This document shows, in pieces, positions 306 through 61,403 of a DNA stretch of 64,000 nucleotides. Numbering within the stretch: the stretch's first letter is position 1; each line of letters opens with the position of its first letter. The notes below the pieces were generated by a model. It was not told where the DNA came from, made no database searches, and saw only the letters and a list, made by a program, of their open reading frames with translations. Made by a program: the position numbers and the translations under genes. The DNA lies in NCBI GenBank assembly GCA_014239855.1, contig JAAZXY010000004.1, forward strand, positions 40,830 through 104,829, read 5' to 3'. This stretch comes from Acidimicrobiales bacterium (GTDB lineage: Bacteria > Actinomycetota > Acidimicrobiia > Acidimicrobiales > MedAcidi-G1).

Positions 306-362
306 GCGACCGGGGGAGATGGTATCTGGAGGCTGGAGTTTCTGGAGGCTGGGGTTTCTGGA

Positions 363-908
363 TCAGTTGGCCCGGCGGCTCAACACGGCCTCGTCACGCA
401 TGGCCGACGAACCCGTCAGCCCACCCATGAGCGGGCCGTCCATCCGGAAGGGGATGACCGTCTCGCGTCGCTCGGCTTCCAACTGGTGGCGCTGGGTGAC
501 CAGCACGGCGTAGCCGACGAGCAGCAGGTCGACCAGGAAGTGGACCATCCAGACCGCTCCGCCGACGGCCACGCCACCCAGGAAGGTGAAGGCGGCAACG
601 CCGCCGAGGGTGAGCAGCAGGTCGCGACGGCGACGACGTGCCGCACCGACGTCATCGGGAACCGAGGTGGCCGCCGAACGCAGGTTCCGGAGGCGGCGTG
701 ACCGGACGCCGGCCAGCGAGGCGCCGACCCTCGGTCCGCCCGTTGATCGGCCAGCGGAAAGGGTGGCCGAACGGCCTGCCGAACGGGTGACCGATCGGGA
801 GGCCGAAGCCATGGCGGCCCACGGGCGGGTCAGGACGTCACGGTTGTGGATGACGGTGGGCGCCAGGACCGCAGCCCACAGGATTCCGAGTCCCAGCAGG
901 ATCAGCAT
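363..908 (-). CDS. Small hypothetical membrane protein (MLILLGLGILWAAVLAPTVIHN…)
   Basis: ORF with N-terminal TM and two further hydrophobic segments; start chosen at MLILLGLG (ORF track extends to 1007). Confidence 0.65.
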   Translation of the reverse strand: MLILLGLGILWAAVLAPTVIHNRDVLTRPWAAMASASRSVTRSAGRSATLSAGRSTGGPRVGASLAGVRSRRLRNLRSAATSVPDDVGAARRRRRDLLLTLGGVAAFTFLGGVAVGGAVWMVHFLVDLLLVGYAVLVTQRHQLEAERRETVIPFRMDGPLMGGLTGSSAMRDEAVLSRRAN

Positions 909-1060
909 CGACGACTTCTCATCTGGATCCACCCTCCGGTCCGCTCGTGCCCCTGTGGATAACGAGGGAAGGTAGTGGGGTTCCCGTGCCAAATGGTGGA
1001 TATTCACGCGCTCAGCGCGCGAATGTTCGCGCTAACCGCGCGAAAACGCCCCCGTAGGGG

Positions 1061-1558
1061 TCACGCAGGGTGGTCGTCCCGTCGCCAGTCACCCGACCGG
1101 CCACCCGACTTCTCCTGCAGCCCGAGCGACTCGACGGTCATCGACCGGTCCACGGCCTTGCACATGTCGTAAACGGTCAGCGCTGCCACCGAACAGGCGG
1201 TCAACGCCTCCATCTCGACACCGGTCCGGTCCACGGTCTCGGTCACCGCCTCGACGTCCACCCAGGCGTCGCCGACCACCAGGTCCACGACCACCGAACT
1301 CAACATCAGCGGATGACACAACGGGATGAGTTCCGACGTCCGCTTGGCGGCCTGGATCCCGGCCACGCGGGCCACGGCGAGCACGTCCCCCTTGGGCACC
1401 GTGCCGGCCGTCAGGGCCTCGGCGGTCTCGGGGCGCATGGCGATCCTGGCCCGGGCCACGGCCCTCCGACGGGTCACGTCCTTGCCACCCACGTCGACCA
1501 TGCGGGCCCGACCCTCGTCGTCCAGATGGGTGAAGCCGTCGGCTCCCGTGCCAGGCAT
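1061..1558 (-). CDS. moaC: Cyclic pyranopterin monophosphate synthase MoaC
   Basis: [23 protein letters not shown]…[13 protein letters not shown]…[27 protein letters not shown] motifs. Confidence 0.96.
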
Positions 1559-1574
1559 CGGGTCGGCCACCGGG

Positions 1575-2558
1575 TCAGCCGCCGATCTGGGACATCGAAC
1601 GGGCTGGACGGATGAACTCCACCCGACCGATCCCGTGCCCGGCCCACTTGGCGGCCACCGCACGCTCCAGCAGGGCCGCCACCTCGTCATCGGAGGCACC
1701 GGACCGCAGCAGCGACCGGACGTCGAACTCGTCCACCGCGAACAGGCAGTTGCGGAACTGGCCGTCCGCCGTGAGCCGGATCCGGTCACATGAATCACAG
1801 AAGCTCCGGGTGACGCTGGCCACCACCCCGATCTCGCCGCCACCGTCGAGGTAGCGGAACCGGCTGGCCGGTGCCGAGGTCCGGTCGATCGCCTCGAGGG
1901 GAAACACCTCGCCCACCCGGGCCACGATCTCGTCCACGCCCACCACGGACTCGAGCGTCCATGCCTCGTCGGCGTCCAACGGCATGAACTCGATGAACCG
2001 GACCACCACGCCCCGGTCCCGGCCGAAACGGGCGAAGTCGACCAACTCGTCGTCGTTGACGCCGCGCATCACGACCACGTTGATCTTCACCGGGTCCAGA
2101 CCGGCGGCCAGCGCCGCGTCGATCCCCTCGAGCACCCGGCCCAGTTCGTCGCGTAGCGTCAACTCGACGAACCGGTCGGCCCGCAGCGAATCCAACGAGA
2201 CGTTGATGCGCTTCAGCCCGGCGTCGGCCAGGACCGCCGCGGCAGAGCTGAGGGTGGCGCCGTTGGTGGTGAGCGCCAGATCCACCCCGAGGCCGGACAG
2301 CATCCCCACCAGGCGACCCAGGTCGGCCCGCACCGTCGGTTCTCCGCCCGTGAGGCGGATGCTGTCGATTCCGTGTCGTTCCACCAGCAGACGAGCCACC
2401 CGCTCGATTTCCTCGAAGGTGAGCAGTTCGTCCCGGGGTAGCCACTTGAGGCCCTCGGCGGGCATGCAGTAGCCGCACCGGAAGTTGCACCGGTCTGTCA
2501 CCGAGATCCGCAGGTCACGGTGCACCCGGCCGAAGCCGTCGATCAGGGGAAGAACCAC
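1575..2558 (-). CDS. moaA: GTP 3',8-cyclase MoaA (radical SAM)
   Basis: [18 protein letters not shown] radical-SAM CxxxCxxC; C-terminal [21 protein letters not shown]. Confidence 0.96.
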
Positions 2559-2580
2559 CCGGTCAGCGTACGGCTCGCCG

Positions 2581-4406: not shown

Positions 4407-4495
4407 CGTTAGGCTGCACCGTCCGCCAATCGGGAACTGCCGACATCCCCCAGTGCGGCACCCGCCACGACCCGACGAGCCGAGGCCCCTCCGTC

Positions 4496-4936: not shown

Positions 4937-5006
4937 CCGGGCACGCCTCCGCCAGCCTCACCCCTCACCTTCCCTCCCTGATCAACCCAGCCCCCGGGAG
5001 GGGACC

Positions 5007-6334: not shown

Positions 6335-6352
6335 GGTCCGTCGGGCGGGGCC

Positions 6353-7714: not shown

Positions 7715-7715
7715 G

Positions 7716-9646: not shown

Positions 9647-10510
9647 GTGCAGGCCATTCCCGCGGGAGGCAGGCCCGCGCACCCGCGTGACGAGATGGCA
9701 CCCGGCACCGGTCCGGTCCGGTTCCCCCGCCGTCCCGCCGGGCCGGGCAGCGGACTCCACTGGTGGGTCGAGATCCTCCTCGTCCTCGGCTTCTACGCCG
9801 TCTACTCGACCGTCCGGAACCTCTTCGGCTCCGAATCGGTGTCGGTGGCCGACGCCCTGGCCAACGCGGAACGGATCATCGACCTGGAACGGTCGGTGGG
9901 CCTCTACCGGGAGTTGGGCCTCCAACAGGCCTTCATCGACCATCGCTGGTTCATCCAGTTCTGGAACCTCTTCTACGGGACGTTCCACTTCGCGGTGACG
10001 GTGTTCGCCCTGGTCTGGGTGTACCGGCGCTTCCCCCACCTGTACGCCCGACACCGCTCGACCTTCCTGTGCACGACCGGCCTGGCCCTGATCGGCTTCG
10101 CCCTGTTCCCGCTCATGCCGCCACGACTGCTCTCGGACTGTGGAGACTTCGGGGCCTGCCTGGCCGTCATGCATCCGTACGTCGACACGGTGAGTGACAT
10201 CGGCGGACTCTGGTCGTTCGATTCGGGAACCATGCAGCAGGTCAGCAACCAGTACGCGGCGATGCCCAGCCTCCACTTCGCCTGGGCCGCCTGGAGTGCT
10301 CTGGTCATCTGGCCGACGGTCCGGAAGCGCTCCGTCCGACTGTTGGCCGCCGCCTACCCGGTGGCCACGCTGTTCGCCGTCATCGTCACCGGCAACCATT
10401 TCTGGCTGGACGCCGTCGGTGGCCTGGTTGCCCTCGGCGCCGGCTCGCTGCTGGCCGGCGTGCTGGTCCGGGCATGGGTCCGACTCCATCGACGGTCGCC
10501 CGCCATCTGA
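9647..10510 (+). CDS. PAP2-superfamily membrane protein (AUR1/inositolphosphorylceramide synthase-like)
   Basis: Multi-TM; AMPSLHFAWAAW and GNHFWLDAVGG PAP2 motifs. Confidence 0.83.
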   Translation: MQAIPAGGRPAHPRDEMAPGTGPVRFPRRPAGPGSGLHWWVEILLVLGFYAVYSTVRNLFGSESVSVADALANAERIIDLERSVGLYRELGLQQAFIDHRWFIQFWNLFYGTFHFAVTVFALVWVYRRFPHLYARHRSTFLCTTGLALIGFALFPLMPPRLLSDCGDFGACLAVMHPYVDTVSDIGGLWSFDSGTMQQVSNQYAAMPSLHFAWAAWSALVIWPTVRKRSVRLLAAAYPVATLFAVIVTGNHFWLDAVGGLVALGAGSLLAGVLVRAWVRLHRRSPAI

Positions 10511-10558
10511 AACCCTCCATCTGAAACCCTCCATCTGAAACAGGACCGCTGAACAGGC
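10503..10558 (+). repeat. 14-bp tandem repeat carrying the PAP2 gene stop codon (TGA at 10508, 10522, 10536, 10550)
   Basis: ccatctgaaaccct / ccatctgaaaccct / ccatctgaaacagg / accgctgaacaggc. Confidence 0.95.
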
Positions 10559-10587: not shown

Positions 10588-12456
10588 GTGCGCCTCGATG
10601 CCCTGCGGTCCCCCGCCGACCTCCGCGACCTCGGTCCCGAGGAACTCGCCTCGCTGGCCGCGGAACTACGTCAACGCATCGTCGACACCGTGGACCGCAC
10701 CGGTGGCCACCTGGGGTCGAACCTGGGCGCCGTGGAGCTCACCCTGGCCCTCCACCGGGTCTTCGACAGCCCCCGGGACGCCATCCTCTTCGACACCGGT
10801 CACCAGACCTACGTCCACAAGCTCCTGACCGGACGGGTCGCCGAGTTCGAGGGCCTGCGTCAGGCCGGGCAACTCTCGGGCTATCCGTCCCGGGACGAGT
10901 CGGCCCACGACTGGATCGAGAACTCCCATGCCTCGACCGTGCTGTCGTACGCCCACGGCCTGGCCACCGCACGCTCCACCACCGGCGACCGGCGGCGGGT
11001 CGTGGCGGTGATCGGCGACGGTTCGATGACCGGCGGCATGGCCTTCGAGGGTCTGAACAACCTCGGCCACAGCGGTCTGCCGGTGACCGTGGTCCTCAAC
11101 GACAACGGCCGGTCCTACGCCCCCACGGTGGGCCGCCTTTCCGAGAGCCTCATCCGGATCCGCTCCAACCCGACCTACATGCGCCGCCAGCGCCATCTCG
11201 AGGACCTGGCCGAGCGCCTCCCATGGGTGGGTGAACTGGTCGAGAGGGGCATCAGCGCCACCAAGGCCGCCCTGCGCGACATGTTCGAGCCCACGGCGTT
11301 CTTTGAGGCACTGGGTGTCCACTACCTGGGGCCGTTCGACGGCCACGACATCGCCGAGGTCGAGGACGCCCTGACCAACGCCGCCGAATTCGACGGGCCG
11401 GTCGTGGTCCACGTGCTCACCCAGAAGGGTCGGGGTCACGCCCCGGCCGAACAGGACCCGATCAAGCACATGCACGACACGGGCGGCGTGAAGCCCGGCA
11501 GCTACACCGAGGCGTTCACCGAGTCGCTCCTCAAGGCCGCCGAGTCCCGACCAGAGGTGGTGGCCATCACCGCGGCGATGCCCGACTCCACCGGCCTGCT
11601 TCCGTTCCGCGACCGGTTCCCGGATCGGTGCTTCGACGTGGGCATCGCCGAGCAGCACGCGGTCACCGCGGCGGCCGGCATGGCCATGGGCGGACTCCGT
11701 CCGGTGATCGCCCTGTACGCCACGTTCCTGAGTCGGGCCTTCGACCAGACCAACCTGGACGTCGGCCTGCACGGACTACCCGTGGTGTTCTGCCTGGACC
11801 GGGCCGGCATCACCGGCGACGACGGCCCGTCGCACCACGGGGTACTGGACATGGTGCTGCTGACCAAGGTGCCGGGAATGACCGTGCTGGCGCCCTCCTC
11901 GTATCAGGAACTGCAGCAGATGTTCGAGGACGCCATGGCCATGACCGATGGCCCGGTGGCCATCCGCTGGTCCAAGACGCCGGCTCCCCACGTGGGTTGG
12001 GACGAGGTGGGCCGGGGGCTGGCTGCCCGCCGGCTCCGTGCCGGAGACGGTCAGGTGTGCCTGCTGGGGGCCGGGAAGATGCTGGCCGCCGCTCAGGATG
12101 CCGCCGACGAGCTGGCCGCCGAAGGCATCGACGCCACGGTGTGGGACCCCCGCTGCATCCGCCCGCTGGACGAGGAGATGCTGGCCGACGCGGCCCGCCA
12201 TCGTCTGGTGGTCACCATCGAGGACGGCTTCCGTGAGGGCGGGTTCGGCACCGGGGTGCTGGACGCCCTGGCGGCGCGGTCGCACCAGAACGAGATGCCG
12301 GGTGTCTCGGTGCTGGGCGTACCGGTGGCTCACCACGCCCACGGATCAGCCGACGCTCTGCTGGCCTCGTTCGGACTGGACGGTCCCGGCGTGGCCTCCA
12401 CCGTGCGTTCCCGCCTCGGAACTGCTACTCAGGAGCAGAAGGGCCCTCAGGAGTAG
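10588..12456 (+). CDS. dxs: 1-deoxy-D-xylulose-5-phosphate synthase
   Basis: GGHLGSNLGAVELTLALHRVF, VIGDGSMTGGMAFEGLNN, IAEQHAVTAAAGMA, DRAGITGDDGPSHHG. Confidence 0.97.
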   Translation: MRLDALRSPADLRDLGPEELASLAAELRQRIVDTVDRTGGHLGSNLGAVELTLALHRVFDSPRDAILFDTGHQTYVHKLLTGRVAEFEGLRQAGQLSGYPSRDESAHDWIENSHASTVLSYAHGLATARSTTGDRRRVVAVIGDGSMTGGMAFEGLNNLGHSGLPVTVVLNDNGRSYAPTVGRLSESLIRIRSNPTYMRRQRHLEDLAERLPWVGELVERGISATKAALRDMFEPTAFFEALGVHYLGPFDGHDIAEVEDALTNAAEFDGPVVVHVLTQKGRGHAPAEQDPIKHMHDTGGVKPGSYTEAFTESLLKAAESRPEVVAITAAMPDSTGLLPFRDRFPDRCFDVGIAEQHAVTAAAGMAMGGLRPVIALYATFLSRAFDQTNLDVGLHGLPVVFCLDRAGITGDDGPSHHGVLDMVLLTKVPGMTVLAPSSYQELQQMFEDAMAMTDGPVAIRWSKTPAPHVGWDEVGRGLAARRLRAGDGQVCLLGAGKMLAAAQDAADELAAEGIDATVWDPRCIRPLDEEMLADAARHRLVVTIEDGFREGGFGTGVLDALAARSHQNEMPGVSVLGVPVAHHAHGSADALLASFGLDGPGVASTVRSRLGTATQEQKGPQE

Positions 12457-12479
12457 AAGGGCCCTCAGGAGTAGAAGGG
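12430..12479 (+). repeat. 18-bp tandem repeat spanning the convergent stop codons of dxs and the NfuA-like gene
   Basis: caggagcagaagggccct / caggagtagaagggccct / caggagtagaaggg. Confidence 0.95.
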
Positions 12480-13112
12480 ATTGTCGCCGGCCGAATGGTC
12501 GGTGGCGTCGACCACCTCGGTGATCTCCGGCACGGACTCGACAATGGCCCGCTGGATCCCCTCGGTGAGGGTGGCCTGGCTCATGGAACAGCCCTGGCAG
12601 CCGCCGCCCATGGTCACGTAGGCCGTGTGGGCGTCAACCCCGATGAGGGTGGCGAAACCCCCGTGGGAGGCCAGCATCGGGTTGACCGTCTTCTCGAGGA
12701 GCTGCTCGATCCGCTCGGGCACCTCGCCGGTCAGCTCCAGTTCACCCACGTCGCCCAGCGGGTTGGGGCGGTTGGGGTTGCGGATGATCAGGCCGCCCTG
12801 CACCGGGTTGCTGGGCAGGTCGAGGGTGGCGCCGGCCAGCTTGGACCGGCTCTCGTCGCCCACCGCCATGTCCAGGGTGGCATCGGCATCGGCATCGACG
12901 GTCCACCGGTGGCAGTCGTCGGGCAGTTCGGAAATGGGCACGAACGCCAGGTCGTAGACGTAGTCCACGCCCGACACGCCGGTCACGTCGATCAGGAGGG
13001 CCAGTGTGGTGGGGTCCTCGCCGTCGTCCTGGGAGTCGCGGACCTCCAGAACCTTGGTCAGCGCACCGTCGCTGACCTCCATGACCCGTTCCGTGGTGAG
13101 TGTTTCGCTCAT
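12465..13112 (-). CDS. NfuA-like Fe-S biogenesis protein (A-type-like N-domain plus Nfu CxxC domain)
   Basis: LLEKTVNPMLASHGGFATLIGVDAHTAYVTMGGGCQGCSMSQATLTEGIQRAI. Confidence 0.87.
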   Translation of the reverse strand: MSETLTTERVMEVSDGALTKVLEVRDSQDDGEDPTTLALLIDVTGVSGVDYVYDLAFVPISELPDDCHRWTVDADADATLDMAVGDESRSKLAGATLDLPSNPVQGGLIIRNPNRPNPLGDVGELELTGEVPERIEQLLEKTVNPMLASHGGFATLIGVDAHTAYVTMGGGCQGCSMSQATLTEGIQRAIVESVPEITEVVDATDHSAGDNPFYS

Positions 13113-13987: not shown

Positions 13988-14980
13988 ATGAACACCGCCG
14001 GCGTGGAATATGACGCACTGCTGCTCGTGGCCTTCGGGGGGCCGGAGTCGATCGACGATGTGGCGCCCTTTCTGGCCCGGGTGACCGCCGGCCGACCCAT
14101 TCCTCCCGAACGCCTGGCCGAGGTGGCCGATCGCTACCGGTCGGTCGGCGGCCGCTCGCCACTGAACGGGCGGCTCCGGACCCTCCAGGCCGCGGTGGCC
14201 GCTGAACTGGTCGACCGAGGCACGGAGGTTCCGGTCTTCTGGGGAAACCGCAACGCCGCTCCCCTGCTGGCCGACACGGTCGCCGAGATGCGTGATGCCG
14301 GGGTACGCCGGGCACTGGCCTGGGTGGCCTCCCCCTACTCCTCCTACAGCACGTGTCGCCAGTACGCCGAGAACATCGAGACGGCCCGGACCGCCGTGGG
14401 CCCCGGCGCTCCGGTGATCGACCGCATCGGAGGCCACCACGACCACCCGGGGCTCGTCCAGCCCGCCGCCGACCGCCTGGCCGAGGCGCTCGACCTTCTG
14501 CCCGCCGACCGCCGTGACCGGGCCCACCTCCTCTTCTCGGCCCACAGCATCCCGAGCACCATGGCCGCCACCTGCGACTACGTGGCCCAGCTCCATGAGG
14601 TGGCCCGCCTCGTCGCCCAGCGCGTCGACCCCGACGGTCGACACGACCGGGAGGTGGTGTGGCAGTCCCGGAGTGGCCCGCCCCAGGTCCCGTGGCTGGA
14701 GCCCGACGTGGGCGACCGGATCGACACGCTGGCGGCGGCCGGAGTGGATGCCGTGGTGGTCTCGCCCATCGGCTTCCCGGTGGAGAACTTCGAGATCGTC
14801 TGGGACCTCGACGTGGAGGCGGCCGGTCGAGCCGAGCGGGCCGGCGTGGCCTTCCAACGGGCCGAAGCGGTCGATAACGACCCACGCTTCATCAACATGA
14901 TCGTCGACCTGTTTCTGGAACATGACCCCGACGCCGGCGACACCTGTCGTACCGACTGCTGCCCACCGGCTCCCCACTGA
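13988..14980 (+). CDS. hemH: Ferrochelatase (HemH/CpfC-type)
   Basis: YDALLLVAFGGPESIDDVAPFL; WGNRNAAPLLADTV; LLFSAHSIPSTMA; SPIGFPVENFEIVWDLD. Confidence 0.94.
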   Translation: MNTAGVEYDALLLVAFGGPESIDDVAPFLARVTAGRPIPPERLAEVADRYRSVGGRSPLNGRLRTLQAAVAAELVDRGTEVPVFWGNRNAAPLLADTVAEMRDAGVRRALAWVASPYSSYSTCRQYAENIETARTAVGPGAPVIDRIGGHHDHPGLVQPAADRLAEALDLLPADRRDRAHLLFSAHSIPSTMAATCDYVAQLHEVARLVAQRVDPDGRHDREVVWQSRSGPPQVPWLEPDVGDRIDTLAAAGVDAVVVSPIGFPVENFEIVWDLDVEAAGRAERAGVAFQRAEAVDNDPRFINMIVDLFLEHDPDAGDTCRTDCCPPAPH

Positions 14981-14996: not shown

Positions 14997-15038
14997 GCCA
15001 TCCCCGAACGGCCATCCCTGAACAACTGGCCCTGAACG
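14997..15038 (+). repeat. Degenerate 14-bp tandem repeat downstream of the ferrochelatase stop codon
   Basis: gccatccccgaacg / gccatccctgaaca / actggccctgaacg. Confidence 0.75.
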
Positions 15039-20009: not shown

Positions 20010-20837
20010 ATGCCCTCCCCACCCCGCTTCTTCTCGGTCTCATCGGCCGGCACGTTCAACCAGTGCCCCCGACGGTGGCGGTTCCGCTACGTCGAGAAGC
20101 GGTCCGACCCGCCGGGCGAGGCCGCCCTGCTGGGCACCTTCGTCCATCGGGTACTGGAGCTGCTCTGTGCCGAACCGGCCGGTGGGCGAACCACCGACCG
20201 CGCCCGGGAACTGGCCGCCACCGCCTGGCCCGAAACCCGCGACGACGGCGACTTCATCGCCCTGGCCCTGGATGACGACGCGCAACGGCAGTTCCGGTGG
20301 CGGGGCTGGACGGCCATCGAGAAGCTCTGGGAGTTCGAGGACCCGGCCCAGGTCGAGGTGGAGGCCACCGAAGCCAAGGTGTCGGCCACCATCGGCGGCG
20401 TCCCCTTCTTCGGCATCATCGATCGCCTCGACAACGCGGCCGACGGGCTGGTGGTCACCGACTACAAGACCGGCAAGGCCCCCCGCCCGGGTGACGTCCC
20501 CGAGAAACTCGACCAGGTCCTGCTCTACGCGGCGGCCGTCGAGGACCAGCGGGGCGAACGCCCCAGCCGGGGGCGCCTCTACTTCCTGGGCAACAGCATC
20601 ATCGAGACCCCGGTGACCGAGGACGGCCTCGAGGCGGCGGTGGGTCGATTCGTCGAAACGTGGGACGACGTCGGCCAGGCATGCGGGTCCGACGAGTTCG
20701 AGGCGAAGGTCGGGCCCCTCTGTGGCTGGTGTGCCCACGTGGCCGACTGCGAAGAAGGCGCCGCCGAGGTCCGCATCCGTGTCTCACGGGGCCGCATGCG
20801 GGCCGACGCTCCGGCCCGGACGTTGCTCGCTCTCTGA
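20010..20837 (+). CDS. RecB-type PD-(D/E)XK nuclease family protein
   Basis: SAGTFNQCPRRWRFRYVEK; GVPFFGIIDRLDN…LVVTDYKTGKAP; C-terminal Cys cluster LCGWCAHVADCEEG. Confidence 0.88.
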   Translation: MPSPPRFFSVSSAGTFNQCPRRWRFRYVEKRSDPPGEAALLGTFVHRVLELLCAEPAGGRTTDRARELAATAWPETRDDGDFIALALDDDAQRQFRWRGWTAIEKLWEFEDPAQVEVEATEAKVSATIGGVPFFGIIDRLDNAADGLVVTDYKTGKAPRPGDVPEKLDQVLLYAAAVEDQRGERPSRGRLYFLGNSIIETPVTEDGLEAAVGRFVETWDDVGQACGSDEFEAKVGPLCGWCAHVADCEEGAAEVRIRVSRGRMRADAPARTLLAL

Positions 20838-20856
20838 GGTACGGCGCTCTGAGCGC

Positions 20857-31509: not shown

Positions 31510-31587
31510 CGCCGCACGCTACCGGGGACCCGGATTCCGGACGGGGCCGATTCCGCTTCCGGCCCCGACGGTTCCTAGGATCCCGCC

Positions 31588-32763
31588 ATGCCCGCCATGC
31601 CCGCCACCGAGACCGAGATCCGCTCCCGCATCGACCAACTGCTGGAAGTCGACTCCACCGACCGTCTGGCCTTCCTGGGCACCCAGTACGACCTGGGCCT
31701 GGCCTGGGTCCACTTCCCTGCGGGGAGCGGCGGCCTCGATGCCGACCGGGACCTGCAGGGCATCGTCCACGAGGCCGTGGTGGCCGCCAACGGACCGCAA
31801 CCCCGGTACGACATCGGCTACGGCATGGCCGCGCCGACCATCGTGACCTGCGGGACCTCTGAGCAGCACACCCGCTGGCTCCGCCCGCTGTTCACCGGCG
31901 AGGAGATCTGGTGCCAGTTGTTCTCCGAGCCGGGGGCCGGATCCGACGTGGCCGGCCTGTCGACCCGGGCGGTGGCCGACGGCGACGAATGGGTGGTCAA
32001 CGGCCAGAAGGTGTGGACCAGCAACGCCCACCTGGCGCGGTGGGGCCTTCTGGTGACGCGGACCGACCCGGACGCTCCCAAGCATCGGGGACTCACCTAC
32101 TTCGCCGTCGATCTGGAACAACCCGGGGTGGAGATCCGACCGCTGCGCCAACTCACCGGCCAGGCCGAGTTCAACGAGATCTACCTGACCGACGCCCGGG
32201 TTACCGAAGCCGACCGGCTGGGCGACGTGGGCGACGGGTGGCGGGTGGCGTTGACCACGCTGATGAACGAGCGGGTGGCCATCGGAGGCGAGACCCGATC
32301 GTCCGAAAAGGGAACGATCGACTGGGTGCTGGAAGCATGGCGGGACCACGGGCATGACGACCCGGCCCGACGGGACGACCTGATGCGCCTCTGGGTACGC
32401 AGCGAGACCCTGCGGCTCAACAACATGCGGGCCGAGCAGTCCCGGGAGACCGGCACGCCGGGCCCCGAGGGTTCGATCGGCAAGGTGCTGTCGGCCGAGT
32501 TGAACAAGGACGCCTTCGCCTTCGCCCTGGGCCTGACCGGGATGGCCGGCACCCTGTTCGACGCCGGCTACGACCAGGATCAGACCCGACCAGCCCTGGA
32601 CTACGACTCGCTGGTCGAGTACTTCCTACGGGTCCGGGCCAACTCCATCGAGGGAGGCACCACTGAGGTGATGCGCAACATCCTCGGCGAACGGGTCCTC
32701 GGACTCCCCGGCGACGTCCGTGTCGACAAGGACGTGCCGTGGATCGAGGTGCCCCGAAGCTGA
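31588..32763 (+). CDS. Acyl-CoA dehydrogenase family protein
   Basis: WCQLFSEPGAGSDVAGLSTRAVADGDEWVVNGQKVWTSNAHLA; IEGGTTEVMRNILGERVLGLP. Confidence 0.94.
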   Translation: MPAMPATETEIRSRIDQLLEVDSTDRLAFLGTQYDLGLAWVHFPAGSGGLDADRDLQGIVHEAVVAANGPQPRYDIGYGMAAPTIVTCGTSEQHTRWLRPLFTGEEIWCQLFSEPGAGSDVAGLSTRAVADGDEWVVNGQKVWTSNAHLARWGLLVTRTDPDAPKHRGLTYFAVDLEQPGVEIRPLRQLTGQAEFNEIYLTDARVTEADRLGDVGDGWRVALTTLMNERVAIGGETRSSEKGTIDWVLEAWRDHGHDDPARRDDLMRLWVRSETLRLNNMRAEQSRETGTPGPEGSIGKVLSAELNKDAFAFALGLTGMAGTLFDAGYDQDQTRPALDYDSLVEYFLRVRANSIEGGTTEVMRNILGERVLGLPGDVRVDKDVPWIEVPRS

Positions 32764-40167: not shown

Positions 40168-40374
40168 CAGGGGGAACGGGTCGGGGAACCGGTCGACGGC
40201 GAAGGGCTTCGGATCCGGTCCGACCCTACGGCGCCCGGCCCCGCCACGGGGGCCACCCGAGCAGGCCGAAGAGCCGTTTCTGATGAGCCGGGAGCCCAAT
40301 GACCCGAGTCCCCCATCGGCCGGGTTTCCCATCAGTGACGCGGATGCATCGCTGCCGTGGCATCCTCGTTGGCG

Positions 40375-41292
40375 ATGGACCTCCGCCAACTCGGCCACCT
40401 GCTGGCCGTCGTCGAGCACCGCAGCTTCTCGGCGGCCGCACGCGCCCTCCACACCGTCCAGTCCAACGTCTCGACCCACGTGGCCAAGCTGGAAAAGGAA
40501 CTGGGCACCGTCCTGATCGACCGGCATGCCATGGTGCCGACCGCCGAAGGCCTCGCCGTGGTCGAGCGGGCACGCCGGATACGAACCGAACTACAGGCCA
40601 TCGAGGATGACATCGTCTCGATGCGTCACGAGGTGGCCGGCGAGGTCCGCATCGGTTGCATCGGCACCACCGGTCGGTGGATGGCCACTCCCCTGCTGGG
40701 CGAACTCTCGGACCGCCATCCGGCGCTGCATCCGGTGCTGGTCGATGCCACCACCACGTCGCTGGCCCCCCGGGTCCTCAACGGCGACCTGGACATGGCG
40801 GTGGTCAACACCCCGGTCGTCGAAGCCGGCCTGGAGACCGAGCCGCTGTTCGACGAGGAACGCATCGTCGTGGCCCCCGGCGACCACCCCCTGGCTGGAG
40901 CGGGCACCATCGACGTGGCCACCCTGGCCGAGCATCGGGTGATGCTCACCCCGGCGGGCACCACCTTCCGTGACGCCATCGACCGGGAACTCGACGCCGT
41001 GGGTCTACGCCTCCAGGCCGCCGCCGAGGTCGACGGACTCCGCCTTCTGGCCTCGCTGGCCTACCAGGGCTACGCACCGGCCCTCCTTCCAGCCAGCGCG
41101 GTGTCGGGCTATCCGGAGGGCGACTGGTCGCTGGTACACGTCGAGGGGCTGGCACGTCGGTCAGTGGGGCTGGTTCGCAACCGGCGAACCACACCATCGA
41201 TGCCCGTACTGGCCACCCGCGACGTGCTGCGTGACGTGATCCGCGAGATCGCCCCCCACCAGCCCGGCATCCATGTCACGCTGGAGCCATGA
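40375..41292 (+). CDS. LysR family transcriptional regulator
   Basis: MDLRQLGHLLAVVEHRSFSAAARALHTVQSNVSTHVAKLEKELGTVLIDR. Confidence 0.94.
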   Translation: MDLRQLGHLLAVVEHRSFSAAARALHTVQSNVSTHVAKLEKELGTVLIDRHAMVPTAEGLAVVERARRIRTELQAIEDDIVSMRHEVAGEVRIGCIGTTGRWMATPLLGELSDRHPALHPVLVDATTTSLAPRVLNGDLDMAVVNTPVVEAGLETEPLFDEERIVVAPGDHPLAGAGTIDVATLAEHRVMLTPAGTTFRDAIDRELDAVGLRLQAAAEVDGLRLLASLAYQGYAPALLPASAVSGYPEGDWSLVHVEGLARRSVGLVRNRRTTPSMPVLATRDVLRDVIREIAPHQPGIHVTLEP

Positions 41293-47678: not shown

Positions 47679-48491
47679 ATGGCTTGGGAGATCACCGACT
47701 TCAGGAGCCTGCTGGCACTCGAGTCCCACGGACCCGACGTGTTCGTCGGGGTCAGCCCCGAGTACCCGTGGGGCCGCGTCTACGGCGGCCAGGTGGTGGC
47801 CCAGGGGCTCCGGGCCGCACAGGCCACCGTCGACTCCGACCACCACGTGCACTCGCTGCACGCCTACTTCATCCGGGGTGGCACGAGTGACGAACCGATC
47901 CGCTACGAGGTCGACCGGATCCGCAACGGCCGGTCGTTCGTGACCCGACGGGTGGTGGCCCGTCAGTCCGACGGGGCGATCCTGAACCTGGCGTGCTCGT
48001 TCCAACTCCACGAGGAACAGGCCGACGTCCAGGAATCACAGATCCCCGACGACGTGGGCGAACCCGGCTCGGGAACCAACGAGGACTGGGAGATTCTCGG
48101 CCGCCGCGTGGCCCACCAGTCCGTCGGCCGGTCGGCCATCTGGCTCAAGGTGCTCGACGAACTGGGCGACGACCCCCGCCTGCAGGCGTGCGCGCTGGCC
48201 TACACCTCCGACGACATCCCGACCAACGCGGTGGGCAGCACCCATCCACGGATCGGCGAGGTTCGGGACGACTCGATCACCACCTACGGCGAGGTGTTCA
48301 TCGGGGCCAGCCTCGACCACTCCATCTGGTTCCACCGGCCACCGCCTCCCGACCAGTGGCTGCTCCACGACCTCCGGTCGCACGGCCTGGCCAGCGCACG
48401 GGGCCTGGCCGTGGGCGAGGTGTTCGCCCCATCGGGTGTGCACGTGGCCACCGTGGCCCAGGAGGTCCTGATCCGCGAACGCACCCGCTGA
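47679..48491 (+). CDS. Acyl-CoA thioesterase (TesB-like)
   Basis: GRVYGGQVVAQGLRAAQATV; HSLHAYFIRGGTSDEPIRYEVDRIRNGRSFVTRRV. Confidence 0.93.
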   Translation: MAWEITDFRSLLALESHGPDVFVGVSPEYPWGRVYGGQVVAQGLRAAQATVDSDHHVHSLHAYFIRGGTSDEPIRYEVDRIRNGRSFVTRRVVARQSDGAILNLACSFQLHEEQADVQESQIPDDVGEPGSGTNEDWEILGRRVAHQSVGRSAIWLKVLDELGDDPRLQACALAYTSDDIPTNAVGSTHPRIGEVRDDSITTYGEVFIGASLDHSIWFHRPPPPDQWLLHDLRSHGLASARGLAVGEVFAPSGVHVATVAQEVLIRERTR

Positions 48492-48525
48492 GACAGGCCC
48501 GCTGAAACGGGCCTACTGAGCCAGG
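48484..48525 (+). repeat. 3 x 14-bp tandem repeat carrying the thioesterase stop codon (TGA at 48489, 48503, 48517)
   Basis: cccgctgagacagg / cccgctgaaacggg / cctactgagccagg. Confidence 0.93.
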
Positions 48526-49160: not shown

Positions 49161-50111
49161 ATGGACTCCTCTGATCGGACCCCGGTCCTCGTCCACCTGT
49201 GGGGCGGCCACTTCCCGTCCGACGCCGTGCGGGAACGGTTCCCGACCGTCGACTTCATCCCGGTACCCACCGACGGTCCGGTGCCCGACGGCGTGTGGGG
49301 CGGGGCCTGCATCACCCAGGCCGCCCGTACCGGCAACCTCGAGGAGGTGCTGAACCGCGGGGTGCGGTGGGTCCACGTCCTGGGCCAGGGGATCGACCAC
49401 TTCCCCCTCGACCACCTGGGCGACCGGACCCTGACGTGTGCACGCGGGGTCAACGCCGTACCCATCGCCGAATGGGTGGTGGCCATGCTCCTGACGGCGG
49501 CCAAGCAGCTCCCGGACCGGTGGGTGACCGAACCGCCCCGCCACTGGGTGCTGGCCGACCTCGGGAGCCTGGACGGGGCCACGGTGGCCTTCATCGGCTT
49601 CGGCACCATCAACCAGGCCACGGCCGAACGCCTCGCCCCGTTCGGCTGCCGGATGGTGGCCGCCACCCGGAGCGGTGCCCCCAGCGGCATGGACGGGGTG
49701 TCGACGACGACCGATGTGCACGCCGCGGTGGCCGGCGCCGACCATGTGGTGGTGGGCGCTCCGCTCACCCCGGCCACCGAGGGAATGGTCGACGACGAAC
49801 TGCTGGCCGCCATGAAGCCCGGGGCCCACCTGGTCAACATCGCCCGGGGTCGCATCGTCGACCAGGAGGCGCTCCGCCGGTCGCTGGACGCCGGCCACCT
49901 CGGGCTGGCATCGCTCGACGTCTGCGACCCGGAACCGCTCCCCGCCGGCCACTGGCTCTACGACCACCCCCGGGTACGGCTCAGCCCCCACGTGTCGTGG
50001 GCCGACCCGGGGGCCATCAACCGACTCCACGCCGCCTTCGCCGACAACCTCGAACGCTGGATGGCCGGGCAGCCGCTGGTCGACGTGGTCGACGTAGGCG
50101 CTGGCTACTGA
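49161..50111 (+). CDS. D-isomer 2-hydroxyacid dehydrogenase family protein
   Basis: ATVAFIGFGTINQATAERLAPFGCRMVAATRS; GAHLVNIARGRIVDQEALRRSLDAGHLGLASLDVCDPEPLP. Confidence 0.93.
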   Translation: MDSSDRTPVLVHLWGGHFPSDAVRERFPTVDFIPVPTDGPVPDGVWGGACITQAARTGNLEEVLNRGVRWVHVLGQGIDHFPLDHLGDRTLTCARGVNAVPIAEWVVAMLLTAAKQLPDRWVTEPPRHWVLADLGSLDGATVAFIGFGTINQATAERLAPFGCRMVAATRSGAPSGMDGVSTTTDVHAAVAGADHVVVGAPLTPATEGMVDDELLAAMKPGAHLVNIARGRIVDQEALRRSLDAGHLGLASLDVCDPEPLPAGHWLYDHPRVRLSPHVSWADPGAINRLHAAFADNLERWMAGQPLVDVVDVGAGY

Positions 50112-50160
50112 GTTTCCGGCTACTGAACTGACCCGTTACTGAGAAGAACCGGTTACCGAG
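50104..50160 (+). repeat. Degenerate ~15-17-bp tandem repeat carrying the 2-hydroxyacid dehydrogenase stop codon and leading into the next gene's RBS
   Basis: ggctactgagtttcc / ggctactgaactgacc / cgttactgagaagaacc / ggttaccgag(gaaag). Confidence 0.8.
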
Positions 50161-51692: not shown

Positions 51693-51714
51693 TTTCCTAC
51701 ATTTTTCCTACATG
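51693..51714 (-). repeat. 2 x 11-bp tandem repeat duplicating the stop codon of the minus-strand enoyl-CoA hydratase gene
   Basis: tttcctacatt / tttcctacatg; CTA (minus TAG) at 51697 and 51708. Confidence 0.9.
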
Positions 51715-52481
51715 CCGGTGAAGTCGGGTGGTCGCTTCTCGGCGAACGCCCGGAGGGCCTCGGCGTTGGCCGGGCCACCCATCAGGTCGGCGAACATCCG
51801 GTCCTCACGGATGCGGGCCTCGGCGATCGCCTCGGCCAACGGCGCCGTCAGCAACTGCTTGGACGCCACCAGTGAAGCCACCGGCTTGGCCGCCAGGCGT
51901 CGGGCGTGGTCCATGGCGTCGTCCATCAGCGACTCGGGGGCACAGAGCCGCCAGGCCAGGCCCATTCGCAGGCACTCGTCGGCATCGATCCACTCCGAGC
52001 TCATGAGCACCCACGTGGCGTCCTGGCGATTCAGGAGCCGGGGAAACAGGTAGCTGGACGCCGCCTCGGGCACCACGCCGAGCGCCGTGAACGGACACTG
52101 CAGCCGGGCTTCGGTGGACATGAAGACCAGGTCGGCGTGACCGATCACCGTGGCACCGATGCCGATGCCCAGGCCGTTGACGGCCACCACGACCGGCTTG
52201 GGAAAGGTGGACAGTCGGTCCATGAACCCGGCGAAGCCGTGACGACCGGGCACGAATCCCGAGTCGGGGTCCTTGCGGCGTTCCATGTCCCCCAGGTCGG
52301 TACCGGCACAGAAGGCACGGCCGGTGCCGGTCAGGACCACCACCGCCACGTCGGTTGAGACGCGGGCATCGTCGAGGGCGTCGGCCAGTGCGTCGTAGTG
52401 GGCCTCGTCGAGGGCGTTGAGGGCCTCGGGCCGGTCGATCCTGAGGAGACGGACCCGGTCTGCGTCGTCGATGTGGAGCAT
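51708..52481 (-). CDS. Enoyl-CoA hydratase/isomerase family protein
   Basis: VVLTGTGRAFCAGTDLGDM; VNGLGIGIGATVIGHADLVFMS. Confidence 0.92.
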   Translation of the reverse strand: MLHIDDADRVRLLRIDRPEALNALDEAHYDALADALDDARVSTDVAVVVLTGTGRAFCAGTDLGDMERRKDPDSGFVPGRHGFAGFMDRLSTFPKPVVVAVNGLGIGIGATVIGHADLVFMSTEARLQCPFTALGVVPEAASSYLFPRLLNRQDATWVLMSSEWIDADECLRMGLAWRLCAPESLMDDAMDHARRLAAKPVASLVASKQLLTAPLAEAIAEARIREDRMFADLMGGPANAEALRAFAEKRPPDFTGM

Positions 52482-55119: not shown

Positions 55120-55122
55120 CCC

Positions 55123-55186
55123 GTTACCGGGGCCTTCGCTCACCGGGGCCTGCGCTCACTGGGGCCTGCGCTTACCGAGGCGAGTG
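55123..55186 (-). repeat. 4 x 16-bp tandem repeat carrying the stop codon of the minus-strand hypothetical gene
   Basis: gttaccggggccttcg / ctcaccggggcctgcg / ctcactggggcctgcg / cttaccgaggcgagtg; minus-strand stops at 55124 (TAA), 55140 (TGA), 55156 (TGA), 55172 (TAA). Confidence 0.95.
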
Positions 55187-55645
55187 CACCGAGACCCGGA
55201 ATCGCCCGTTGGTGGGCAGCGGGCAGAACAGTGCCGTGGCCTCCATCAGGAACACGGCCAGCAGCGGACCATCGGGCAACCCCGGCGCACCGGTCTCCCA
55301 GACGAGGCCCCGCTTGGGGTTGTCCTGTCGGAGCGACCAGCCGGCGGGGGCCACCACTCCGGCGTCCCGTAGGCGATCGCCGGCGCCCCGTCCGGTGCTG
55401 TGGTCGAGTCCAACCGAGGAAGCATCCCGGTCCGATCCGGCCACGAACGTCGCCACGGGCACCTGAGACCCACGAGCCGAGAACCAGGCGAAGAGGCCCG
55501 GCACGTCGGCCCGGAGCGCGTCGTCAACGTCGGGTTCCACGTTGACCCATGATCCCGGTGAACCGGCTGCCTCGCCGAGCACGTCGACCAGGTCCGCCGG
55601 ATCGGCAGAGTCGACGAGGAACGTCTCGGTGTCAAAGCTGGCCAC
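55172..55645 (-). CDS. Hypothetical protein, 157 aa
   Basis: Intact ORF between two well-defined genes, ending at the TAA inside the 16-bp array. Confidence 0.6.
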   Translation of the reverse strand: MASFDTETFLVDSADPADLVDVLGEAAGSPGSWVNVEPDVDDALRADVPGLFAWFSARGSQVPVATFVAGSDRDASSVGLDHSTGRGAGDRLRDAGVVAPAGWSLRQDNPKRGLVWETGAPGLPDGPLLAVFLMEATALFCPLPTNGRFRVSVHSPR

Positions 55646-55682
55646 GTCCGGACGCTAGTGGTGCCACCGGTACGGTGGCACG

Positions 55683-57506
55683 GTGACCGACCGGCCGCCC
55701 CATCCCCTTCGGATCGCCGCACTGGTCAAGCAGATCCCGAAGTTCCAGGAGATGCGCCTCGGTGACGACGGCCGTCTGGTACGCGACGGCCTTGAGCTCC
55801 ACATGAACGACTACTGCCGACGAGGGGTGCGGGCCGGTTGTGACCTGGCCGAGGCCACCGGCGGCACGTGCACGGCGATCACCCTCGGTCCGGACACCGC
55901 CGACACCGTGCTGCGCGAGGCGATCCTGTGCGGCTGCACCGACGGGATCCACGTGACGGGCGCCGCGTTCGCCGGAAGCGACACGTTGGCCACCGCCCGG
56001 GCCGTGGTGGCCGCGCTCGAAGCCACCGGCCCGTGGGACCTGATCCTGTGCGGTCGCAACTCGGTGGACGCCGACACCGGTCAGGTGCCTGCTCAGGTCG
56101 CCGAACTCCTGGACCTCCCTCTGCTGGTGGGGGCCCGGGAACTCGACCTGGTCGCCGGCAGCGGGGAACAGGAGGGTGGCCTGGCCGCCCTACTGGAGCA
56201 CGACGACGAGTGGTTGCGTGTCGAGGTGGACCTCCCGGCCGTGGTCTCGTGCGCCGAGCGGCTGTGCGATCCGTGCAAGGTCAAGGAGCCCGAGGCGTGG
56301 GCCACCGTGGACGGCGATCGGATCCGCAGACTGGGGCCCGATGACCTGGGGCCCGGCCCGTGGGGCGCGGCGGCCAGCCCGACGGTGGTCGGATCCGTCC
56401 GGGTGCTCGAGATCGAACGGACCGGCGAGCGCCTCGGTGGCGCCACCCCGGCCCATCTGGAGCGGGTGGCCGAGGTAGTGCGATCCCGAGGCGCCCTCCG
56501 GACGTCCGACGACCAGACCGGGGAGGTGGCCCGGCCGTCAGGGCCGGGAAACGGCGGTGAGATCGTGGTGATCGGCGAACCCGGCCGGGCCCGCTCGACC
56601 GCCGAACTCCTGGGCGCCGGCGCCGACCTGGCCGCCACCATCGGCGGCCGGACGGTACTGACCATCGACGTGGTCGACGACTGGGAGGCCCTCAGCGGGC
56701 AGGGTGCCGACCGGGTGATGCGACACCCCGGGGTGACCGGGGCCGATGAGGTGGCTCGCCTGGTGGCCGGGCCCCTGACGACCGACCCGCCGTGGGCCGT
56801 GCTGGCACCGTCGACGGCGTGGGGCCGCGAGGTGGCGGCCCGCCTGGCCGTTCGCATGGATGCCGGCCTGACCGGCGACGCCGTGGGCCTCGAGGTCCGG
56901 GACGGCCGGCTGGTGGCCCTCAAGCCGGCCTTCGGTGGCCGCCTGATGGCCGAGATCACCTGCACCTCCGCTGTCCAGATGGCCACCGTCCGCTCCGGCA
57001 TCCTCCCCATGTCGGCCCCTCGGCCCGGGGCTCCGTTCGCCGCCGACCTGCTGTCTCCCGCTCTGTCCTCGGCGCCGGACACGTCACCTGACCGGCTGGT
57101 CCGGGTTCTGGAGCGGCGCCGCGACGATGACAGCGACCTGTTGGCCAACGCCGAGGTGGTGGTGAGCGTCGGACAGGGCATCGACCCGGCCGACCTTCCC
57201 CTCGTGGAGGAGTTGGCCGGTCGGTTGGGCGCCGAGTTGTGCGCCACACGAAAGGTCACCGATGCCGGTTGGATGCCCCGGGCCCGTCAGGTGGGCATCA
57301 CCGGGCATGCCATCTCCCCCCGACTGTGCATCGCCATCGGCACGTCGGGGAAGTTCAACCACACCGTCGGGCTTCGGGGCGCCGACACGGTGGTCGGCAT
57401 CAACCCGGACCCCGGCTGCGAGCTGTGGGGCTGGTGCGACGTGGGCCTGGTCGCCGACTGGCGTGACGCCCTCGAGCCGCTCATCAACCGGCTGACCGCC
57501 GACTGA
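55683..57506 (+). CDS. Fused electron transfer flavoprotein, EtfB-like N-half plus EtfA-like C-half
   Basis: ALVKQIPKFQEM…VDADTGQVPAQVAELLDLPLLVGA (beta) and AVQMATVRSGILP…LCATRKVTDAGWMPRARQVGITGHAISPRLCIAIGTSGKFNHTVGLRGADTVVGINPDP (alpha FAD domain) in one 607-aa frame. Confidence 0.93.
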   Translation: MTDRPPHPLRIAALVKQIPKFQEMRLGDDGRLVRDGLELHMNDYCRRGVRAGCDLAEATGGTCTAITLGPDTADTVLREAILCGCTDGIHVTGAAFAGSDTLATARAVVAALEATGPWDLILCGRNSVDADTGQVPAQVAELLDLPLLVGARELDLVAGSGEQEGGLAALLEHDDEWLRVEVDLPAVVSCAERLCDPCKVKEPEAWATVDGDRIRRLGPDDLGPGPWGAAASPTVVGSVRVLEIERTGERLGGATPAHLERVAEVVRSRGALRTSDDQTGEVARPSGPGNGGEIVVIGEPGRARSTAELLGAGADLAATIGGRTVLTIDVVDDWEALSGQGADRVMRHPGVTGADEVARLVAGPLTTDPPWAVLAPSTAWGREVAARLAVRMDAGLTGDAVGLEVRDGRLVALKPAFGGRLMAEITCTSAVQMATVRSGILPMSAPRPGAPFAADLLSPALSSAPDTSPDRLVRVLERRRDDDSDLLANAEVVVSVGQGIDPADLPLVEELAGRLGAELCATRKVTDAGWMPRARQVGITGHAISPRLCIAIGTSGKFNHTVGLRGADTVVGINPDPGCELWGWCDVGLVADWRDALEPLINRLTAD

Positions 57507-57522
57507 CCTCCGACTGACCGCA
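57490..57522 (+). repeat. 3 x 11-bp tandem repeat spanning the fused-ETF stop codon
   Basis: ggctgaccgcc / gactgacctcc / gactgaccgca; TGA at 57493, 57504 (stop), 57515. Confidence 0.93.
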
Positions 57523-57547
57523 CCGTCCGGCCGGACGGGTCAGTCGG
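57510..57547. terminator. Inverted repeat between convergent genes, candidate bidirectional terminator
   Basis: CCGACTGACC … GGTCAGTCGG (10-bp stem) enclosing CGTCC-GGCC-GGACG; no clear T-tract. Confidence 0.55.
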
Positions 57548-57902: not shown

Positions 57903-57933
57903 CAGACGGACCTGGCTACCGGTCTCAGGGGCC

Positions 57934-59799: not shown

Positions 59800-59876
59800 G
59801 TCGAAAAGGCTACGGCCCCCGGACCCTCCGGGGACGGAGGTGTGACCAATGTGCCCCGACCCGGAATCGTTCCGGA

Positions 59877-60563
59877 TCAGCGGTGGCGGCCGGTCTCCAG
59901 ACGCCGACGGGGCGCCTCGCTCCCCCGGCGGGCAATGGCCACACCCAGGTCCTCCACCGCGTCGTCGAGGTCGGGCCACGTCCCGAAGGCCGGCCCGGTG
60001 GTGCCCAACATGGCCAGGCGCTCGGCGGCATCGGCCACCAACAGGGGGTGGGGGGGACGCCCGTCCACCTCGTCGACCGCGGCGCGGGTGGTGGCCGCCC
60101 AGAGAACGAGGTCGGACGCCACCGGGACCTGCACGGCGTGCAAGGGGGTGCTTCCCCGGACACGACGCCCGGTGAAGGTCACCACCATCCGGGGTCGGGT
60201 CCGACGCCAGGATTCGAGGCGGGTGGCCAGCGTCTTGTGGGGCACGCCGAGTCGCTCGGCCAGCTCCCGGACGCCGCCGTCGCCGAGCAGGATGAATCCG
60301 ACGTGTTCGGGTCGGGCCGTGGCCTCGTCGGCCAGGCGGGCCCACAGCGAGCGCTGCTGATGGCTCTTGAGGGGGTCGGTCCGCCGAAGGCCGGGGGCCC
60401 GTGAGAGGCCGGCGGCGATGCCACGCATGATCGACCTGGGCACCAGCGAGTCGGGCGACCGGTCGGCGGCTTCGCGGATCACCTCGAACCGTGTGGCCAG
60501 CGCGCCGAACTCCAGAGGCTCCTGCCCGGGACCCCGGGGATCGTCGTCGACTAGAGCAGCCAC
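59877..60563 (-). CDS. Hypothetical protein, possible DNA-binding segment
   Basis: GTG start 60563; GGVRELAERLGVPHKTLATRLESWRRT resembles an HTH. Confidence 0.55.
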   Translation of the reverse strand: MAALVDDDPRGPGQEPLEFGALATRFEVIREAADRSPDSLVPRSIMRGIAAGLSRAPGLRRTDPLKSHQQRSLWARLADEATARPEHVGFILLGDGGVRELAERLGVPHKTLATRLESWRRTRPRMVVTFTGRRVRGSTPLHAVQVPVASDLVLWAATTRAAVDEVDGRPPHPLLVADAAERLAMLGTTGPAFGTWPDLDDAVEDLGVAIARRGSEAPRRRLETGRHR

Positions 60564-60675
60564 GGCCGAAACGGTAGTCCGGCCGGAGACGGGAGTCGGT
60601 ACGCGACAATGGTCGGGTCGGGTCTCCGCCGTCGGCTCGGGGCCGACGTTCGAAGACCAGGAGGGTGAGGGAGAC

Positions 60676-61095
60676 GTGTCACGGAACTGGCAACGGTCGA
60701 TCCTGATCGGCCTCGGTTTGGCGAACATCGTGTCCGGGTGCTGGGCCGTGTTCGCCCCGTCGAACTGGTACGAGAACTTCCCCGGATGGTCTCCACGGGT
60801 CGTGTCGGCACTACCGCCCTTCAACGCGCACCTCGCGTCGGACACGGGGTCCGGGCTCCTCGCCACCGGACTGCTGGTGCTGATCGCCGGCCTGTACCTC
60901 CGGCGGGACGTCACGGTGGTCGCCACGGTCGGCTACCTGGCCTTCTCCGTTCCCCACGCGGTGTTCCACCTGCGACACCCCGGCGACGGCCTGTCGACCA
61001 CCGAGGAGGTCGTCAACGTCGCCGGACTGTGGCTCGTGGTGGTCCTGGCCGGAGCGGTGCTCGTGACCGAGGTCAGGCGGAAGGCGCCCTCGTGA
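60676..61095 (+). CDS. Hypothetical 4-TM membrane protein
   Basis: MSRNWQRSILIGLGLANIVSGCWAVFAPSNWYENFPGW…; RBS-like gagggtgagg upstream of GTG. Confidence 0.7.
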   Translation: MSRNWQRSILIGLGLANIVSGCWAVFAPSNWYENFPGWSPRVVSALPPFNAHLASDTGSGLLATGLLVLIAGLYLRRDVTVVATVGYLAFSVPHAVFHLRHPGDGLSTTEEVVNVAGLWLVVVLAGAVLVTEVRRKAPS

Positions 61096-61364
61096 GCAGA
61101 ACCGTCCGGCCCACCGACTCCAGCCAACCGAGCTGACGGCGCATCCACGCCTGGGTCGAGAACCCGCAGGTCAACATCGGGATCTACCGAGATGCCCGTC
61201 GGCAAATCGCTGCCGGCCGACTCTCTCAGTCGACGGCTGCTGCTGCCATCAGAACCGTCACGAACACGGCAACTCGTTTCACCAGCCTCTGTCCGTCGCT
61301 CCTCCCTTGGGGAGAGGGAGGGGCGACATCGGAGCCCCCAGGCAGAGACAAGCGAAACGGCGTC

Positions 61365-61403
61365 CTGGCTCGGCGGTCTGGCTCGGCGGTCTGGCTCGAA
61401 TCT
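61365..61403 (-). repeat. 3 x 13-bp tandem repeat abutting the stop codon of the DUF2061 gene
   Basis: ctggctcggcggt / ctggctcggcggt / ctggctcgaatct. Confidence 0.9.

What the first reader, a model, noticed from the sequence alone, without database searches (positions are those of the whole stretch)
321..61403. Recurrent minisatellite-like arrays at stop codons
At many gene 3' ends in this window, short locus-specific tandem repeats (11-18 bp units, 2-4 copies) span or directly abut the stop codon: 331, 10503, 12430, 14997, 36056, 48484, 50104, 51693, 55123, 57490, 61365, with weaker cases near 20835, 30568, 32761 and 57925. The unit differs at each locus and generally includes the local end of the CDS, so they look like independent local duplications, not a dispersed repeat family. 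Where the stop lies inside the unit and the unit length is not a multiple of 3 (11, 14 or 16 bp), the copies place stop codons in more than one frame. I noticed no comparable arrays at 5' ends. Hypotheses: fail-safe termination for frameshifted ribosomes, a 3'-UTR or mRNA-end signal, or slippage tolerated only where a stop survives. The neutral explanation is live: a random unit length is non-multiple-of-3 two thirds of the time. I know of no description of such a pattern, but did not search.
Basis: partly seen in the sequence, partly recalled or inferred. Interest (0 to 1): 0.82.

Follow-up and report, generated by a model that had tools for sequence, protein, structure and literature searches.

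The report
Young tandem duplications at stop codons
In this uncultured actinobacterium about one gene end in seven to fourteen carries a recent short stutter of its own sequence at the stop codon; the pattern is real and specific to a few lineages, and is best explained by a high rate of small duplications that survive mainly where they do not change the protein.

Summary
In 920 kb of the window's genome (G000), 65 of about 890 stop codons carry a tandem array within 40 bp. A more sensitive test gives 15.1% of stops, against 0.35% in shuffles and 4.0% at starts. Two close congeners have 1 in 287, and E. coli 0 in 138. Orthologous sites in congeners lack the array, and syntenic spacers with an array are a median 17 bp longer in G000, so the arrays are young insertions.

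The fail-safe reading is not supported. Unit lengths show no frame preference (11, 11 and 9 for mod 0, 1 and 2). Stop triplets in the copies are not significantly better kept than other triplets. Out-of-frame arrays add no in-frame second stop.

In-frame 12/15/18-bp duplications inside genes are also about 3-fold raised in G000, equally at both protein ends. This favours a lineage-specific rise in short tandem duplication, filtered by selection: a duplication across a stop keeps both the protein and the 3' flank. Some stop-anchoring beyond this model remains unexplained. Stop-overlapping VNTRs of the same kind are published in Yersinia pestis. What is new is the density, the lineage-specific burst and the genome-wide quantification.

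The parts
325..362 (-). 16-bp unit, 2.4 copies, directly after the TGA of gene 363-908 (-), before a tRNA-Ala gene; G002 has a single short flank here (32 bp less)
10499..10541 (+). 14-bp unit, 3.1 copies, spans the TGA of gene 9647-10510 (+); G002 lacks it
12428..12479 (.). 18-bp unit, 2.9 copies, contains the stops of both convergent genes 10588-12456 (+) and 12465-13112 (-); absent in G002 and G012
14997..15037 (+). 14-bp unit, 2-3 degenerate copies, starting 17 bp after the stop of gene 13988-14980 (+)
48484..48519 (+). 14-bp unit, about 3 copies, spans the TGA of gene 47679-48491 (+)
50103..50126 (+). 15-bp unit, 2 copies plus degenerate further ones, spans the TGA of gene 49161-50111 (+)
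51693..51713 (-). 11-bp unit, 1.9 copies, spans the TAG of gene 51708-52481 (-), between convergent genes; G002, G012, G006 and G011 lack it
55126..55181 (-). 16-bp unit, 3.5 copies, spans the TAA of gene 55172-55645 (-), between convergent genes; five congeners lack it
57489..57519 (+). 11-bp unit, about 3 copies, spans the TGA of the ETF gene 55683-57506 (+)
61365..61398 (-). 13-bp unit, 2.6 copies, begins 4 bp after the stop of gene 61403-61834 (-)
20829..20853 (+). marginal 15-bp repeat at the TGA of gene 20010-20837 (+); not clearly above chance alone
31582..31606 (+). 9-bp unit, 2.8 copies, spans the ATG of gene 31588-32763 (+): a 5'-end counter-example

Best explanation
These are independent, recent tandem duplications of 11-18 bp of local DNA, some re-expanded to 3-5 copies and then decaying. 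In this species' lineage such duplications arise, or persist, more often than in its close relatives, throughout the genome. Selection then filters them. Inside a gene most destroy the frame, and in-frame ones survive mainly near protein termini. Near starts they disturb the ribosome site or promoter. A duplication whose unit spans or abuts the stop codon leaves the full reading frame with its stop upstream and an intact copy of the 3' flank downstream, so nothing is lost. Survivors therefore pile up at stops, most visibly in short convergent spacers where stop ends are the only free DNA. Shown: excess over chance, derived state, lineage specificity, absence of frame or stop-triplet selection, and raised in-frame duplications in coding DNA with no bias to the 3' end. 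Inferred: that the raised coding rate reflects a mutational change, and that tolerance rather than a stop-centred mutational hotspot sets the position. The molecular source (slippage, flap re-ligation or staggered-break fill-in without Ku) is unknown.
For: Arrays are derived: 24 array genes with a congener orthologue show no array there, and syntenic spacers with arrays are longer by a median 17 bp (n=22) against 0 without (n=181). Lineage-specific: 65/890 stops in G000, 1/287 in G002+G003, 0 in G001, G011, G012 and G017, yet present in G013, G025 and G029. Coding DNA shares the rise: 12/15/18/21-bp in-frame repeats 58 in 862 kb against 6 in 274 kb in G002+G003, ratio 3.1, P=0.005; interior CDS alone ratio 2.9, P=0.005. 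Against G002 and G003 orthologues, tandem-type in-frame insertions number 4 in G000 and 0 in the relatives. N- and C-terminal in-frame repeats are equally raised (11 and 8), which argues against a stop-centred hotspot. Coding repeats are nearly all multiples of 3 (121 of 136), while noncoding ones are flat over 12-16 bp. No frame or stop-triplet preference. Published precedent with the same reasoning: Y. pestis VNTRs overlapping stops (PMC3689786).
Against: Plain uniform tolerance does not fully fit. Noncoding DNA more than 50 bp from any stop or start, which should be most free, has 2.3% in arrays against 11.6% near stops. In convergent spacers arrays lie closer to a stop than uniform placement gives (P=0.0003-0.009), although in codirectional spacers the fit is acceptable once 15-45 bp before starts are protected. 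A terminator-protection account for this was not supported. Coding excess counts are modest (58 vs 6), and G025 and G029, which have stop arrays, show no clear coding excess. G000 is one 83%-complete MAG without strain data.
Confidence: 0.66

Rival explanations
1. The arrays come from a duplication-generating process that acts preferentially at translation or transcription ends (for example R-loops, stalled or colliding RNA polymerases, or local strand opening), so stops are a mutational hotspot as well as a tolerant place.
For: Array starts peak at -3 to +5 relative to the stop. Near-stop noncoding coverage is 5-fold that of far intergenic DNA. In convergent spacers arrays sit nearer to stops than uniform, and the shortest convergent spacers carry arrays as often as longer ones. 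The same anchoring is seen in G013, G025 and G029.
Against: In-frame duplications in coding DNA are not biased to the 3' end (11 N-terminal vs 8 C-terminal). Codirectional spacers fit uniform placement with a protected start side. Far intergenic DNA may simply be more constrained.
Confidence: 0.2
2. Fail-safe termination: the repeats are selected because they add stop codons for read-through or frameshifted ribosomes.
For: Stop-spanning arrays do add stops: 38.7% have an in-frame second stop within 6 codons against 9.3% of other genes, and all three frames are closed within 45 nt in 4 of 31 against 2%.
Against: That gain comes only from multiple-of-3 units (10/11); other units give 10%, as background. 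There is no enrichment of any frame class, stop triplets are not significantly better kept (P=0.26), and arrays are absent in orthologues. Additional stop codons are not favoured in eubacteria (PMC6764699).
Confidence: 0.04
3. The arrays are functional 3'-UTR elements (terminator, Rho entry, RNA stability or protein binding) that evolved in this lineage.
For: Position directly after the stop, many at convergent ends.
Against: Units share no 6-mer and have no C-over-G bias on the sense strand (C 0.328, G 0.320); hairpins are no commoner at array stops and show no consistent relation to arrays; no conservation.
Confidence: 0.07
4. Chance or an assembly artefact.
For: Draft MAG in 144 contigs.
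Against: Shuffles give 0.35% against 15.1%. Units and whole arrays (mostly under 60 bp) are shorter than a sequencing read. The copies differ by substitutions. The same kind occurs in G029, which is nearly closed (2 contigs).
Confidence: 0.02

Closest known systems
Yersinia pestis VNTR loci overlapping ORF ends (PMC3689786)
   Same: Locus-specific tandem repeats, mostly 7-21 bp units; ten overlap stop codons and six start codons (one of the six is a CRISPR); the paper argues that copy changes at stops leave the coding sequence unchanged.
   Different: There, a minority of a genome-wide VNTR set, defined by strain polymorphism. Here stops are the main noncoding site, in 7-15% of genes, as a burst not shared by close congeners; polymorphism is untested.
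Mycobacterial interspersed repetitive units (MIRU), from general knowledge
   Same: Tandem repeats in short spacers of actinobacteria, some overlapping stop and start codons.
   Different: MIRUs are, by general knowledge, one dispersed family of longer units; here units are 11-18 bp and share no 6-mer between loci.
Small tandem duplications from filled-in staggered breaks joined by Ku-dependent end joining (PMC8355091, mammalian cells)
   Same: Small head-to-tail duplications of local sequence.
   Different: Requires Ku there; Ku is not found in G000, G013 or G029 and is present in array-free G020 and G024.
TAACTGA direct repeats of Beggiatoaceae (PMC4679880)
   Same: Short direct repeats in bacterial intergenic DNA with a patchy distribution.
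   Different: One fixed heptamer, mostly just upstream of starts; here units differ at each locus and sit at stops.
Fail-safe additional stop codons (PMC6764699)
   Same: Extra stops downstream of the primary stop.
   Different: Not supported in eubacteria there, and not supported by the frame or triplet tests here.

Membership tests
Bacterial minisatellite / VNTR loci | Head-to-tail copies of a short locus-specific unit | tested here: met
   units 11-24 bp, 2-5 copies.
Bacterial minisatellite / VNTR loci | Copy number varies between strains | not testable with these tools
   Only one genome of the species is held; between species, congeners have no array.
Bacterial minisatellite / VNTR loci | Units inside genes are multiples of 3 | tested here: met
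   121 of 136 wholly coding arrays.
Dispersed intergenic repeat families (MIRU, REP, TAACTGA type) | Homologous unit sequence shared between loci | tested here: not met
   No 6-mer shared by six or more of 59 units.
Fail-safe stop codons | Extra stops favoured in frame, or conserved more than neighbouring bases | tested here: not met
   Period mod 3 flat (11/11/9); stop triplets kept 47/53 against 413/506 for other triplets, P=0.26.
Ku-dependent fill-in duplications | Presence of the Ku end-joining protein | tested here: not met
   No Ku hit in G000, G013 or G029; Ku present in array-free G020 and G024.
Rho-entry or terminator elements | C-rich sense strand, or a hairpin | tested here: not met
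   C 0.328, G 0.320; strong hairpin at 11 of 57 array stops, mixed placement.

The most novel reading that the evidence does not exclude
Stop codons are true nucleation sites for short tandem duplication in some actinobacterial lineages: a mutational process coupled to the end of translation or transcription makes 11-18 bp duplications there, switched on independently in several lineages.
Probability: 0.2. Interest if true: 0.72.

Novelty: new variant of a known kind. Interest (0 to 1): 0.42.

Why it matters
The arrays are a ready record of how often short tandem duplications arise and where selection lets them live, in a lineage whose congeners serve as nearly array-free controls. That makes the origin of bacterial minisatellites testable: which repair or replication change raises duplication, and whether gene ends are only tolerant or also prone. 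It also warns that repeated stops at gene ends need not mean fail-safe termination.

Tried and rejected
Ku end joining as the source: rejected by presence/absence. Loss of NucS, of the PolA 5' nuclease domain (a finer check of its catalytic residues failed technically), of ExoVII large subunit or of RecG: none separates array-rich from array-poor genomes. Terminator hairpins confining arrays to the stop side: not supported. Rho-entry composition: no C-over-G bias. A shared motif: none at 6 bases; GGCCA and GCCAG are modestly enriched 5-mers. Frame and stop conservation tests for fail-safe function: negative. Literature searches for Acidimicrobiia with tandem repeats, and for short tandem duplications by replication slippage in bacterial intergenic DNA, found nothing.

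Full report
What was examined. The window is contig C89:40830-104829 of a 2.35-Mb draft genome (G000; 144 contigs, 83% complete), 70% G+C. Relatives that could be named are mostly Acidimicrobiia draft genomes. 920 kb of G000 was fetched. Genes were called with a dicodon model written for this purpose (902 genes, 94% coding). Tandem arrays were sought as runs of self-match at periods 7-30.

The observation. Site 14997 lies 17 bp beyond its stop. Three of the four weak cases are at noise level and one is marginal. Genome-wide there are 226 arrays. Of these, 136 lie wholly in genes and 121 of them have a unit divisible by three. Of the 90 that touch noncoding DNA, 41 overlap a stop codon, 26 more lie within 60 bp downstream, and 7 overlap a start. 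Density is 4.1/kb in convergent spacers, 1.45 in codirectional and 0.54 in divergent ones (convergent against divergent ratio 7.6, P=8e-9). In an equal-sized test around each end, 15.1% of stops, 4.0% of starts and 0.35% of shuffled stops reach the threshold.

Lineage specificity. The same scan gives 65 of about 890 stops in G000, 0 of 175 genes in G002, one simple repeat in 112 genes of G003, and none in G001, G011, G012 and G017. Arrays of the same kind occur in congener G013 (5 among 43 genes) and in two other families of the order, G025 (6 of 87) and G029 (4 of 85). About 1,100 genes from named actinobacterial loci give about 0.8%, including a few clear stop-spanning cases. E. coli K-12 gives 0 of 138.

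Derived state. For 24 array genes an orthologue was found in a congener, and none had the array. Examples: after the stop at 363 G000 has 32 extra bases where G002 runs on directly; at C56:84233 the unit TCCTGATGGCC(A/G)GT occurs three times in G000 and once in G003; at C67:45951 two extra copies of CACTGATCCGGGC-like units precede the ancestral copy. For most stop-spanning arrays the reading frame ends at the same codon as in the relative; at C67:77647 an in-frame 12-bp copy lengthens the protein by four residues. Syntenic spacers with arrays are a median 17 bp longer than in G002/G003 (n=22), those without 0 (n=181).

Tests of function. Stop-spanning units are divided 11/11/9 over period mod 3. 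Stop triplets are kept in 47 of 53 copies against 413 of 506 other triplets (P=0.26). Units not divisible by three have an in-frame second stop as rarely as genes without arrays (10% and 9.3%). Composition is strand-neutral. No 6-mer is shared by six or more units. Strong hairpins occur at 11 of 57 array stops with no consistent placement. A systematic study found no selection for additional stops in eubacteria (PMC6764699).

Mutation and filter. If duplications are raised everywhere and only filtered, coding DNA should show raised in-frame duplications. It does: 58 in 862 kb against 6 in 274 kb of G002+G003 (ratio 3.1, P=0.005), and 4 tandem-type insertions in G000 against 0 in its orthologues. 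They are commoner near both protein ends, with 11 in the first and 8 in the last 90 bp, so the coding side shows no pull toward the stop. A duplication across a stop keeps the protein and one intact 3' flank, so the stop is where the free zone begins.

What does not fit fully. Noncoding DNA more than 50 bp from any gene end has 2.3% in arrays against 11.6% near stops, and in convergent spacers arrays lie closer to stops than uniform placement gives. Either distant intergenic DNA is more constrained than it looks, or stops are also prone. In codirectional spacers the positions fit uniform placement with a protected zone before the next start. Restricting convergent spacers to under 200 bp leaves only a moderate excess in the shortest class (5 against 1.6 expected, P=0.03).

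Source of the duplications. Not found. Ku is not found in array-rich G000, G013 and G029 and is present in array-free G020 and G024. NucS, the PolA 5' nuclease domain, ExoVII and RecG do not separate the groups. Unit lengths of 11-18 bp would suit re-ligated flaps or slippage; this is inference only.

Placement among known things. The arrays are minisatellites. Stop-overlapping VNTRs with 8-41 bp units, and the argument that they spare the protein, are published for Yersinia pestis (PMC3689786); notably that paper found low diversity at some of these loci and suspected constraint. What is new here is the density, the lineage-specific burst with nearly array-free congeners, and the quantitative rejection of a fail-safe role. 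Strain variation could not be tested.

Noticed in passing
window 12428-12479: One 18-bp unit contains a stop codon for each strand, so a single array repeats the stops of both convergent genes.
   Followed up: yes
window 55126-55181: The copies at the gene end read GTAA, GTGA, GTGA, GTAA: the stop position varies between TAA and TGA but stays a stop in these copies.
   Followed up: partly
window 39268-39439: Adjacent 21-bp and 15-bp arrays, both multiples of 3, inside gene 38734-40527 (-), a stretch also open on the other strand.
   Followed up: no
window 15516-19996: Adjacent GyrA/topoisomerase IV A-type and GyrB-type genes, A before B.
   Followed up: no
L118 10436-10475 (G000 contig C60): A 12-bp array of 3.3 copies lies 15-55 bp upstream of the polA start, a rare 5'-side case.
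   Followed up: no
L164-L168 (G003 contig C55, first 100 kb): A perfect 6-bp microsatellite (GGCGAT) of about 18 copies downstream of a stop in G003, the only stop-side repeat found there.
   Followed up: no
loci of the genus: G+C content differs widely inside one genus (about 57% to 75%); the two array-rich members, G000 and G013, are at the high end, but G001 at 68% has none.
   Followed up: partly
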